In this document: positions 285 through 63,300 of the stretch, piece by piece
How positions within the stretch are numbered: position 1 is the stretch's first letter
How the letters are laid out: every line of letters starts with the position of its first letter
NCBI GenBank assembly: GCA_963995525.1
Contig: OZ023208.1
Coordinates: forward strand, 22,566,620-22,630,619
Direction of reading: 5' to 3'
DNA: 64,000 nucleotides
DNA from: Escarpia spicata
Taxonomy: Eukaryota; Annelida; Polychaeta; Sabellida; Siboglinidae
Made by a program: the position numbers and the translations under genes
Notes under the pieces: model-generated
Database searches by the model: none
What the model saw: only the letters and a program-made list of their open reading frames with translations
What the model was told of the DNA's origin: nothing

Positions 285-3200
285 ACGAAGCTTATGTGGC
301 ATCCAGGCGAAAGTCTCTACAAGGTAATTAACATTTTGGATATGTGAAAAAGAAATTGTTTGAATAAAAATTAACTATCCTGAAGAATGTTCAGTAATGT
401 AATAATTTTATGTTTTCTCATTGAACGATACCAGTGTTTGTGACCTGTTCTAAACCTATGCAGTTTCAATGATGTAACCAGTCATCTACATTCATTTATC
501 TTCGACAGGGCAGCCTCTGGTAAGGCAGAAGAAGATGATCCAAAGGATTCTCTGCAGGTGATGTTTACAATTTTTGAAAAACAGACAAAATCTAAAAAGC
601 AACAAGAAATGTCCTCATAAATCATTAGAACGATTCATTTGTTTCTAACACTGTGGAAATATCAATACTTAATATAATCACAAATAAAGGTGTTTTCTTA
701 TTTGCAGAAACTGCTGATGGCTGAAGGAGAAACATACGATTTCAACAAATTCATGCCTAATTTGAAGGTTTGCTATTGCTTGAACAAGGACTCATTTTTT
801 ACCTAATTATTCTAAATTGTGTGTATATATTTGGAAGCGCTCTGCAGGAGTGGTAGTTTAATGTGTGTGTCAGTGTTATCTTGTAAGCCGCTGACTGCCC
901 TTGGTTTCGTTTTAACACTTTATGCTGTGTTTATGCTGTAACACTGTTTATGCAGTGACACTGGTTTATGTTGGACACTGGTTTATGTTGGACACTATTT
1001 TATTTTGTGACACTGGTTTATTCCATAATACTGGTTTGTGTCGTGACACTGGTTTATGTTGTGACACTGGTTTGTGTTGTGACACTGGTTTATGTTGCGC
1101 ACTGGTTTATGTCGTGACACTGGTTTATGTTGGACACTGGTTTATGTTGGACACTATTTTATTTTGTGACACTGGTTTATTCCATAACACTGGTTTATGT
1201 TGTGACACCGGTTTATGTCGTGACACTGGTTTAGTCGTAACACTGGTTTATGTTGTGACACTGGTTTATGTCATGACACTGGTTTATGTCATGACACTGG
1301 TTTTTATCAACTATTCCATCTTTTTGTTACAGGCAACAACAATTGAAGCCGTTAATGAGCTTATCACTGAACTGGAAACGAGGCAAGTCATTTGTTTGAT
1401 TTAATCTATTATAGTAAGTTTAATTAAAACAATTAGTTTCCTTTATCAACCAGGTGAGTACATCAGATCTTTTTCCTTATTACCAGACTCAAAATGTACT
1501 GGATTGGAAGCTTTGATCTGTGTGCTGTGGTTCTTGTAGTGCTCTTGGTGTGTTCTGTGGTTCTTGTAGTGCTCTTGGTGTGTTCTGTGGTTCTTGTAGT
1601 GCTCTTGATGTGTTCTGTGGCTCTTGTAGTGCTTTTGATGTGTTCTGTGGTTCTTGTAGTGCTCTTGATGTGTTCTGTGGTTCTTGTAGTGCTCCTGATG
1701 TGTTCTGTGGTTCTTGTAGTGCTCTTTATGTGTTCTGTGGTTCTTGTAGTGCTCTTGATGTGTTCTGTGGTTCTTGTAATGCTCTTGATGTGTTCTGTGG
1801 TTCTTGTAGTGCTCTTGATGTGTTCTGTGGTTCTTGTAGTGCTCTTGGTGTGTTCTGTGGTTCTTGTAGTGCTCTTGGTGTGTTCTGTGGTTCTTGTAGT
1901 GCTCTTGGTGTGTTCTGTGGTTCTTGTAGTGCTCTTGATGTGTTCTGTGGTTCTTGTAGTGCTCTTGGTGTGTTCTGTGGTTCTTGTAGTGCTCTTGGTG
2001 TGTTCTGTGGTTCTTGTAGTGCTCTTGGTGTGTTCTGTGGTTCTTGTAGTGCTCTTGATGTGTTCTGTGGTTCTTGTAATGCTCTTGATGTGTTCTGTGG
2101 TTCTTGTAGTGCTCTTGATGTGTTCTGTGGTTCTTGTAGTGCTCTTGGTGTGTTCTGTGGTTCTTGTAGTGCTCTTGGTGTGTTCTGTGGTTCTTGTAGT
2201 GCTCTTGATGTGTTCTGTGGCTCTTGTAGTGCTTTTGATGTGTTCTGTGGTTCTTGTAGTGCTCTTGATGTGTTCTGTGGTTCTTGTAGTGCTCCTGATG
2301 TGTTCTGTGGTTCTTGTAGTGCTCTTTATGTGTTCTGTGGTTCTTGTAGTGCTCTTGATGTGTTCTGTGGTTCTTGTAATGCTCTTGATGTGTTCTGTGG
2401 TTCTTGTAGTGCTCTTGATGTGTTCTGTGGTTCTTGTAGTGCTCTTGATGTGTTCTGTCATTCTTGGAGTGCTCTTGATGTGTTCTGTGGTTCTTGGAGT
2501 GCTCTTGATGTGTTCTGTGGTTTTTGTAGTGCTATTGATGTGTTATGTGGTTCTTGTAGTGCTCTTGATGTGTTCTGTGGTTCTTGTAGAGCTCTTGATG
2601 TGTTCTGTGGTTCTTGTAGTGCTCTTGATGTGTTCTGTGGTTCTTGTAGTGCTCTTGATGTGTTCTGTGGTTCTTGTAGTGCTCTTGATGTGTTCTGTGG
2701 TTCTTGTAGTGCTCTTGATGTGTTCTGTGGTTCTTGTAGTGCTCTTGGTGTGTTCTGTGGTTCTTGTATTGCTCTTGATGTGTTCTGTGGTTCTTGTAGT
2801 GCTCTTGATGTGTTCTGTGGTTCTTGTAATGCTCTTGATGTGTTCTGTGGTTCTTGTAGCGCTCTTGATGTGTTCTGTGGTTCTTGTAATGCTCTTGATG
2901 TGTTCTGTGGTTCTTGTAGTGCTCTTGGTGTGTTCTGTGGTTCTTGTAGTGCTCTTGATGTGTTCTGTGGTTCTTGTAGTGCTCCTGATGTGTTCTGTGG
3001 TTCTTGTAGTGCTCTTGATGTGTTCTGTGGTTCTTGTAGTGCTCTTGATGTGTTCTGTGGTTCTTGGAGTGCTCTTGATGTGTTCTGTGGTTCTTGTAGT
3101 GCTGACAACATCGCCGCCCAAGCTCTGGAGCACATCCACGCCAATGAAGTTGTCCTAACGGGGGGGGACATCTCCAAAACCATTGAAGCTTTTCTCAAGG

Positions 3201-60300: not shown

Positions 60301-63300
60301 TAAAAAAGTGTTCAATTTTAGCAACAAATCAAAATCTACTGAAGATATTTCACCAAATGAGGCATCGTTTTTAAACCTCATGCCCTGTGTAATCCGAAAA
60401 GGTACAAAACTCCATTAATTTTCACAATTTTGTGACTTAGTACACGGTTCACTGTGGAGTGTCACATACAACTGTCGTAGCTGAAATTGGTCTGACCTCC
60501 TTCGCTGGCGCAACAATGAGCACGACGAATCTCGCTTCCTGGAGCGTGCGACTCAAGTTGGCTGGAAACTTGAGGCGGGCAATGCACACGGAGCGTGTCT
60601 GGGCGGTCGCCAGAGTACACCTAGATAAGATATGACAGGAACATAATTTATTTGGTCACACATATACACCTGGTACATCACGTTGTGAGCTGTTCAGTAG
60701 ACACACGTACAACTGAGGAGGTCCTCTAGAAACCCCTTGGGGCTTTAGTCGAGGACCATCTAGACCACTAATTATTGCTACGTAATACGTGAACAATACT
60801 ACACTTCATAAACATGAATATTGTAATTATTACTAATTATTACTCAAGCTTCATTACATTATATAAATACTCACTACTTCATAAATACTACTAGTAGTAG
60901 TAGTACTACTACTACTACTAATACTACTAGTAGTCTACTACTACTAATACTACTAGTTGTCTACTACTATTACCACTAGTATTCTACTACATAAATAATA
61001 CTAACTACATAAATAATACTAACTACATAAATAATACTAACTACAGTAATATATGAAAAAAACTATTTTTTTTTTTATATATATAATCCCTATTCATACC
61101 TGAATTTAGTATTTTGACAGTAATAAATATTTTAGTTTTCTGACAGGTACAGCAAGATTATCCCAGGGTACACCGGACAGGTACAGCAAAATTATCTCAT
61201 ACACCTAACTGGTACAGCAAGATTATCCCAGTGTACACCTGGCAGGCACAGCAAAATTATCTCATACACCTAACTGGTACAGCAAGATTATCCCTAAGTA
61301 CACCTGACAGGTACAGCAAGATTTTCCCTATGTACACTTGACAGGTACAGCAAGATTCTCCCAGGGTACACTTGACAGGTACTGCAAGATTCTCCCAGGG
61401 TACACTTGACAGGTACTGCAAGATTCTCCCAGGGTACACTTGACAGGTACTGCAAGATTCTCCCAGGGTACACTTGACAGGTACTGCAAGATTATCCCAG
61501 GGTACACTTGACAGGTACTGCAAGATTATCCCAGGGTACACTTGTACGTGTCAGGTGTACCTCGGATTAACCTTCAGACCAGGTGATTACTGGTGTGATG
61601 GAATTAATACAGAACATAGGTAAGAATAACCTATAATGCTGTAATACCTTTGGAGATATTTATAAAGGATTACCATAATTAATAAAAAAAAACAGGTTTT
61701 TATAGTTATTAGGACATTTATGTTTAACAAAATAAAAGGTTGACTATTGTAGTGGAATTGGCCGACATCACATGGGTCTTTCAACACACTTACATGACAT
61801 ACACATACATGTGTGTCTCAACACACTTATGTGACACACACTTCCTTGACACAGGTCTCTCAACACACTTACATGGCACACACTTCTATGACATGGGCGT
61901 TTCAACACACTTACATGACATAATTTACAGTTTTACACATGGGTATCTCAACACACTTACATGACACACACTTCCATGATATCCATGGGAGTCTCAACAC
62001 ACTTACATGACACACACTTCCATGATGAATGTGTCTCAACAAGACTTACACGACACACACTTACATGACATGGGTGTCTCAACACACTTACATGACATGG
62101 GTGTCTCAACACACTTACATGACACACACCCAGTGCTGGTCGTAGTCAAAGCCACAGTCTTCTGTCCTCATTGCTCCCTGAATGGTGCGTCTCAGTTGAT
62201 GTACTGCCAGACACAACAAACATGCACTGTACACACGTGACATTGAATCCATTCTATGATGTATCTTTAGAGCAGTGTCTAGGATGGTAGGATCTTATTC
62301 CACAACCTCACTCAGGCTGTCATAATTTTTGTTGAAAAAACATACCAAACACAAGAAAATGTCTTGTTGTCTTCATATATGTAAATGTTTTGATTACTAT
62401 AAACTTGAGGCTCTTGTTTTCTTCTGTGAGAAAGAGCGCGAACATGACATTCTGTGAGGAAATGAAGACCATGACATTCCGTGAGGAGATGAAGACCATA
62501 ACATTCCGTGAGGAGATGAAGACCATGACATTCCGTGAGGAGATGAAGACCATGACATTCCGTGAGGAGATGAAGACCATGACATTCCATGATGAGATGA
62601 AGACCATTCCATTCTGTGAGGAGATGAAGACTGTGATATTCTGAGAGGAGATGAAGAAGTGACATTCAGAGAGGAGATGAAGACGGTGTCATTCTGTGAG
62701 GAGATGAAGACCATGACATTCCGTGAGGAGATGAAGACCATAACATTCCGTGAGGAGATGAAGACCATGACATTCCATGAGGAGATGAAGACCATGACAT
62801 TTGTGAGGAGATGAAGACTGTGATATTCTGAGAGGATATGAAGTCCGTGATATTCTGAGAGGAGATGAAGACCATGATATTCTGTGAGGAGATGAAGACC
62901 ATGGCATTATGTGAGGAGATGAAGACCATTGCAGTCTGTGAGGAGATGAAGACCATTGCATTCTGTGAGGAGATGAAGACCATGGCATTCTGTGAGGAGA
63001 TGAAGACCATTGCATTCTGTGAGGAGATGAAGACCATTGCATTCTCTGAGGAGATGAAGACCATTGCATTCTAGGAGGAGATGAAGACCATTGCATTCTG
63101 TGAGGAGATGAAGACCATTGCATTCTGTGAGATGAAGACCATTGCATTCTGTGAGGAGATGAAGACCATGGCGTTACCGAGTCATGTGTAAAGAGCTCCT
63201 ACTTGTTCCCTATTTTTGAGTCATGTGTAAAGAGCTCCTACTTGTTCCCTGTTTTATAAACAAAGTGCCATATTACCTGAGTCATGTGTAAAGAGCTCTT

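What the first reader, a model, noticed from the sequence alone, without database searches (positions are those of the whole stretch)
1531..63300. Minisatellites that nucleate on exon-intron junctions in three neighbouring genes
Thirteen arrays have a repeat unit that contains a real splice junction with its coding bases. Acceptors: EIF2B2 exons at 3100, 6341 and 10479; HABP4/SERBP1 exon at 32482; SLC4A11 exon at 47126. Donors: EIF2B2 4512 (two blocks); HABP4/SERBP1 30203; SLC4A11 63277, 62119, 56498, 55224, 46493 and 44208. Unit lengths (24, 28, 29, 30, 32, 33, 45-48, 49 bp) and sequences are unrelated, so this is not one mobile family but a repeated process acting at junctions. Sequence copying is direct observation. 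A process targeted at junctions (for example slippage at R-loops or at pre-mRNA-binding sites, or RNA-templated repair) is inference. The null model is that arrays start anywhere in introns and selection stops them at exons.
Basis: partly seen in the sequence, partly recalled or inferred. Interest (0 to 1): 0.95.

Follow-up and report, generated by a model that had tools for sequence, protein, structure and literature searches.

The report
Splice-junction minisatellites in a tubeworm
In three neighbouring genes of a deep-sea tubeworm relative, short repeat arrays copy the ends of exons into the introns, a kind of structure reported before in lancelets and here seen in a segmented worm, where splicing probably hides the extra copies.

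Summary
Gene models for EIF2B2, HABP4/SERBP1 and SLC4A11 (30 introns, 60 junctions) confirm all 13 listed junction arrays and add one (acceptor 44403): 14 of 60 junctions, 8 donors, 6 acceptors. Eleven of the 14 share at least 9 exonic bases; two (3100, 56498) only 4. Junction probes match their own intron far better than other introns. At 12 EIF2B2 and SLC4A11 junctions none of three reference proteins shows a nearby indel, so there the exon was probably the source. The host looks like a vestimentiferan annelid: EIF2B2 is 96% identical to Ridgeia piscesae, 71% to amphioxus. The kind is published: amphioxus 'mirages'. My searches showed no annelid report. Targeting is not established: under uniform seeding junction arrays are 3.0-3.9 times too common, but by coverage junctions are not special (13 of 60 against 265 of 798 intron positions). 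Best reading: short tandem duplications arise throughout these introns, and those straddling a junction are tolerated because splicing removes the extra copies.

The parts
1519..3103 (+). 30-bp array, 52.8 copies, ending at EIF2B2 acceptor 3100; only 4 exonic bases
4504..4613 (+). 24-bp array starting at EIF2B2 donor 4512; 9 exonic bases
5850..5926 (+). displaced block of the donor-4512 array
6117..6357 (+). about 43-bp array ending at EIF2B2 acceptor 6341; 17 exonic bases by reading (TRF stops at 6313)
9153..9578 (+). displaced block of the acceptor-10479 array, 49-bp units
10023..10514 (+). 49-bp array ending at EIF2B2 acceptor 10479; 36 exonic bases in the array
30186..30302 (+). 39-bp array starting at HABP4 donor 30203; 18 exonic bases; fills most of a 120-bp intron
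31809..32155 (+). displaced block of the acceptor-32482 array
32305..32514 (+). about 47-bp array ending at HABP4 acceptor 32482; 33 exonic bases in an unconserved linker
43475..43773 (-). displaced block of the donor-44208 array, 28-bp units
44153..44216 (-). 28-bp array at SLC4A11 donor 44208; 9 exonic bases
44393..45215 (-).
45642..46513 (-). 32-bp array, 27 copies, at SLC4A11 donor 46493; 21 exonic bases in the array
47114..47198 (-). 28-bp array at SLC4A11 acceptor 47126; 13 exonic bases
55160..55239 (-). 32-bp array at SLC4A11 donor 55224; 16 exonic bases
   Evidence: weak ungapped probe score
55609..56501 (-). 28-bp array at SLC4A11 donor 56498; only 4 exonic bases
61781..62124 (-). 27 to 46-bp array at SLC4A11 donor 62119; 6 exonic bases by TRF
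63179..63298 (-). 39-bp array at SLC4A11 donor 63277 (TRF ends at 63255); 22 exonic bases by reading, copies interrupted next to the exon
509..11017 (+). EIF2B2, ten exons in the window (the 5' exons lie outside)
16884..33925 (+). HABP4/SERBP1, eight exons
43160..63481 (-). SLC4A11, fifteen exons in the window

Best explanation
These are junction-straddling minisatellites of the kind called mirages in amphioxus. A short tandem duplication of about 24-49 bp happened to cover the end of an exon and the start of the intron (or the reverse). The cell keeps using the outermost splice site (first donor, last acceptor), so every extra copy lies in the intron, is spliced out, and the protein does not change. 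The duplicated unit then expanded and was homogenised by ordinary repeat turnover such as slippage or unequal exchange. Shown: exonic bases recur in the intron next to the junction; at 12 junctions of EIF2B2 and SLC4A11 no indel is seen near the junction in the references aligned; unit lengths ignore the reading frame. Inferred: the direction exon to intron, use of the outermost site, the seeding event and the way of expansion. The introns are rich in minisatellites throughout, so junction arrays need no special targeting, though a mild junction bias is possible.
For: 14 of 60 junctions carry own-intron copies of the junction; 13 of them exceed every control. At the 12 EIF2B2 and SLC4A11 junctions, three references each, no indel lies within 5 residues; copied residues are identical in 21 of 25 positions (Lingula EIF2B2) and 32 of 40 (Capitella SLC4A11), against 76% and 63% overall. 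Ridgeia EIF2B2 reads through the same joins by eye. Unit length mod 3 is 0, 1, 2 in 5, 6 and 3 arrays, while the three arrays inside coding exons have periods that are multiples of 3. Non-terminal copies keep GT or AG in 139 of 174 cases. 13,716 of 43,346 intron bases lie in arrays. Precedent with apparently normal splicing in amphioxus.
Against: The uniform-seed null expects 3.0-3.9 times fewer junction arrays than seen, so chance plus tolerance may not be enough. No RNA shows which copies are spliced. Copied residues are poorly conserved at 62119 (1 of 3), 56498 (1 of 2) and 44403 (2 of 5) against Capitella. At 32482 they are not conserved at all (0 of 12 and 1 of 12) and the Ridgeia prediction differs there, so that array may have fed the exon instead; at 30203 the alignment to P0244 is broken, probably by the exon duplication. 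At 3100 and 56498 only 4 exonic bases are shared.
Confidence: 0.72

Rival explanations
1. Junctions are hot spots: a transcription- or splicing-coupled process (nicking at R-loops, stalled forks at exon edges, RNA-templated repair) makes tandem duplications preferentially at exon-intron boundaries.
For: Excess of 3.0-3.9 times over uniform seeding, p from 6e-7 to 6e-3 over 18 variants; 12 of 43 TRF arrays span a junction against 4.1 expected within their own introns (p = 7e-5) and 1.7 over any intron (p = 6e-8).
Against: By coverage junctions are no richer in repeats than introns: 13 of 60 against 265 of 798, and positions within 100 bases of a junction are less often repeated (12 of 48). Donors and acceptors are hit alike. 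One window, chosen for its looks. No mechanistic evidence.
Confidence: 0.2
2. Array to exon: intronic arrays came first and an array unit was captured as the splice site, extending the exon.
For: Only 4 exonic bases at 3100 and 56498; at HABP4 32482 the 33 exonic bases encode an unconserved linker and Ridgeia differs there.
Against: At the 12 EIF2B2 and SLC4A11 junctions there is no indel near the junction, and most copied residues are conserved.
Confidence: 0.1
3. The arrays carry a function, for example back-up splice sites kept by selection.
For: GT or AG is kept in 139 of 174 non-terminal copies; all 26 copies at 46493 keep GT; the splice dinucleotide ranks first in 7 of 14 arrays, four of these with 1 or 2 or 3 copies only.
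Against: The splice dinucleotide ranks low in several arrays (24 of 27 at 3100, 23 of 25 at 56498, 29 of 46 at 10479).
Confidence: 0.05
4. Assembly artefact: collapsed or spuriously expanded repeats.
For: Raw reads could not be examined; some arrays are nearly perfect.
Against: Fourteen junctions with unrelated units, diverged copies, and blocks split by other sequence.
Confidence: 0.04

Closest known systems
Mirages of amphioxus (Adh3, TnC, globins BflGb6 and BflGb9, PGBD5; PMC3087553 and PMC3902484, passages read; the Adh3 paper itself is not held)
   Same: Minisatellite-like tandem duplications spanning exon-intron boundaries, at both intron ends, with splice signals in many copies and apparently normal mRNA.
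   Different: Host here is an annelid, not a cephalochordate; loci and units are unrelated; 14 junctions in three neighbouring genes, against single genes named in the passages read.
Variable tandem repeats at exon-intron boundaries of human segmental duplications (PMC2812944, passages read)
   Same: About 30-bp units at boundaries.
   Different: Those change exons or introns of recent paralogues, often with alternative transcripts; here no change of the protein is seen at 12 of 14 junctions.
[quoted passage not shown] PMC4974935, passages read)
   Same: Tandem duplication that carries splice signals.
   Different: Here junction copies add to introns; no gained intron was shown.
Intron minisatellites in other lophotrochozoans: earthworm metallothionein intron 1 (PMC12783039) and abalone TSSK1-like intron 3, a 27-bp unit (PMC6905558), passages read
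   Same: Minisatellites in introns of an annelid and a mollusc.
   Different: No copying of exon-intron junctions is reported in the passages read; their sequences were not examined here.

Membership tests
Mirage (junction minisatellite) | Tandem unit contains both exonic and intronic bases of a real junction | tested here: met
   14 of 60 junctions, 11 of them with at least 9 exonic bases
Mirage (junction minisatellite) | Unit size in the published range (10-72 bp at Adh3, about 150-160 bp in globins) | tested here: met
   24-49 bp
Mirage (junction minisatellite) | Occurs at both 5' and 3' intron ends | tested here: met
   8 donors, 6 acceptors
Mirage (junction minisatellite) | Mature mRNA spliced normally | not testable with these tools
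   No RNA; predicted Ridgeia EIF2B2 reads through the same joins by eye
Mirage (junction minisatellite) | Length instability between alleles or in soma | not testable with these tools
   One assembled sequence only
Intron gain by tandem duplication | A new intron absent from relatives | not tested
   Intron positions were not compared between species
One mobile repeat family | Shared unit sequence among arrays | tested here: not met
   Unit sequences at the 14 junctions differ by reading; no formal all-against-all comparison was run

The most novel reading that the evidence does not exclude
In siboglinid tubeworms exon-intron junctions are true hot spots for birth of short tandem duplications, through a transcription- or splicing-coupled process shared with or convergent on amphioxus, so that about a quarter of junctions carry arrays and provide raw material for new exons.
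Probability: 0.2. Interest if true: 0.82.

Novelty: new member of a known kind. Interest (0 to 1): 0.52.

Why it matters
[quoted passage not shown] Seeing 14 in 60 junctions of an annelid means either convergence or a process that genome surveys overlook, perhaps because repeat masking hides it. It makes two questions testable genome-wide: whether exon edges attract tandem duplication, and whether such arrays seed new exons and introns. It also warns that automatic gene prediction could pick the wrong copy of a splice site.

Tried and rejected
Amphioxus as host, my first idea from the mirage literature, was rejected by the protein search. A single mobile family was rejected by reading: units differ. 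Coding constraint on copies was rejected: unit lengths ignore frame. Interior arrays as relics of other junctions: sense against antisense splice scores gave donors p = 0.18 and acceptors p = 0.036 for 19 arrays (score 100 or more), which include blocks derived from junctions, so nothing firm. Growing divergence with distance from the exon: no simple gradient in the five arrays printed. First guesses of exon ends had off-by-one errors and were corrected; one further fix (donor 10615) was made. The Pfam scan found only two parts of EIF2B2; one of three frames in the PDB searches gave nothing. The gathering-level Rfam scan found only a histone stem-loop, ARAGORN no tRNA.
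Full report
What was checked. I read the gene-bearing parts of the window, ran Tandem Repeats Finder and built gene models from splice-site consensus, open frames and protein homology. EIF2B2 matches eIF2B-beta chains of the PDB, HABP4 matches SERBP1 chains weakly at its tail (E 0.0017) and a Ridgeia protein named for the hyaluronan/mRNA-binding domain strongly, and SLC4A11 matches a solved SLC4A11 with E = 9.8e-194. 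The models give 30 introns and 60 junctions (donor 10615 corrected). No RNA was available.

The arrays. TRF with periods of 10 or more gives 53 merged arrays, of which 43 touch introns and 12 cross into an exon by 4 to 36 bases. Two more, at acceptor 6341 and donor 63277, stop short in TRF but repeat exon sequence. Total: 14 of 60 junctions in 13 of 30 introns. Eleven share at least 9 exonic bases; 62119 has 6, and 3100 and 56498 have 4.

Beyond chance. A probe of 24 exonic and 24 intronic bases was slid along the junction's own intron and, as control, along 300 equally long draws from other introns. Thirteen junctions score 16 to 48; the control maximum over all junctions is 13.5. The fourteenth, 55224, scores 10 (its control maximum 8.5) in this ungapped test; TRF joins 16 exonic bases to its array. 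Three further junctions score 10 to 11.5 and were not counted: 48992 and 56620 beat their own 300 controls, 60620 does not. Probes from exon interiors reach 14 in 0 of 238 cases and 10 in 4. Splice-site consensus alone therefore does not explain the matches.

Direction. For EIF2B2 and SLC4A11 (12 junctions) the protein was aligned to three references each. None shows an indel within 5 residues of the junction. Copied residues are identical to Lingula EIF2B2 in 21 of 25 positions and to Capitella SLC4A11 in 32 of 40, for example ALYTKV at 55224, TPFLN at 47126, ANGG at 4512; at 62119, 56498 and 44403 conservation is poor (4 of 10 together). So at most of these junctions the exon end is probably older than the array and was copied outwards. 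For HABP4, the 30203 region is interrupted in one of two references, and 32482 lies in an unconserved linker where even Ridgeia is predicted differently; there the direction is open.

Behaviour of the copies. Unit length modulo 3 is 0, 1, 2 in 5, 6 and 3 arrays, as expected if the copies are not translated. The three arrays lying inside coding exons have periods that are multiples of 3. Non-terminal copies keep the splice dinucleotide in 139 of 174 cases; its rank among the positions of the unit runs from first to near last. This looks neutral: inner sites are neither purged nor specially kept, though three arrays offered only one scorable copy. Four blocks of the same units lie deeper in the introns (5850, 9153, 31809, 43475); in HABP4 intron 6 the two blocks are separated by a 150-bp repeat that is 92.6% identical to 30493-30640, so it probably inserted into the array.

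Is there targeting? Two nulls disagree. If each array began as one seed placed uniformly in the array-free intron, about 4 should cover a junction; 14 do (18 variants: ratio 3.0 to 3.9, p from 6e-7 to 6e-3). Random placement of whole arrays within their own introns gives 4.1 expected for 12 seen by TRF (p = 7e-5; simulated also). But 265 of 798 grid positions in introns lie in local repeats, against 13 of 60 junctions, and positions within 100 bases of a junction are repeated in 12 of 48 cases against 173 of 354 at 200-800 bases. So junctions are not richer in repeats than the introns around them. The window was also flagged because it looked unusual. I conclude that tolerance through splicing is the better-supported part and that a junction bias is possible but unproven.

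Host. EIF2B2 is 96% identical over the whole 248-residue query to Ridgeia piscesae; every other hit among the 120 listed is at 78% or less, and Branchiostoma lanceolatum is at 71%. For SLC4A11 no tubeworm is named among the 120 listed hits; the best named is Capitella at 61%. Ridgeia is a siboglinid annelid. HABP4 is 87% identical over the aligned part, so the window probably comes from a relative of R. piscesae rather than that species.

What is known. Tandem duplications of exon-intron boundaries are called mirages in amphioxus: Adh3, globins and others (PMC3087553, passages), TnC and PGBD5 (PMC3902484, passages). That literature reports normal mRNA, length and somatic instability, and calls the mechanism unclear. 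The Ridgeia genome paper (PMC9921365, passages) mentions tandem repeats only as a method step in the passages shown. Searches for tubeworm or annelid reports (one search listed 15 of 11,645) and for minisatellites at exon-intron boundaries listed no annelid case that I recognised. Of the annelid and mollusc papers listed I read passages of three: earthworm metallothionein (PMC12783039), an earthworm genome (PMC12130307) and abalone TSSK1-like (PMC6905558); they report intron or genome minisatellites, not junction copies. The held library is open-licence papers only, so absence here is weak.

Verdict. A confirmed and striking set of junction arrays, of a kind known from lancelets, in what appears to be a new phylum and at high density; targeting remains a hypothesis.

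Noticed in passing
30132-30203 and 30324-30395: Tandem-duplicated HABP4 exon (88% identical over 50 bases); both copies are in the Ridgeia protein, one copy in P0244 by reading; the 120-bp intron between them is nearly all junction array, as the published mirage model for new exons would predict.
   Followed up: partly
30493-30640 and 32159-32304: A repeat of about 150 bp, 92.6% identical, whose second copy splits the HABP4 intron-6 array.
   Followed up: partly
22037-23938, minus strand: 602-aa open frame with a Mutator-like transposase domain (PF20700, E 4e-57) with a histone 3' stem-loop (RF00032) just beyond its end, inside HABP4 intron 2.
   Followed up: partly
51568-54674 minus strand; 37124-37763 plus strand: Reverse-transcriptase-like ORFs (RVT_1 in 2 of the 3 scanned, one below the curated cut-off); the first group lies in SLC4A11 intron 7.
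   Followed up: partly
14200-16580, minus strand: A C2H2 zinc-finger gene next to HABP4 that looks like ZNF367 (name recalled, finger found); the pair is also adjacent in vertebrates, from memory. TRF shows one weak array there, 16091-16127; its junctions were not modelled.
   Followed up: partly
8823-9154 and 9577-9888: A stretch of about 312 bases repeated at 93.7% on both sides of the displaced 49-bp block, consistent with duplication of block and flank together.
   Followed up: no
12210-12842: 39-bp array between genes beside a stretch that looks like a tRNA-derived element by eye; ARAGORN finds no tRNA in the window.
   Followed up: no
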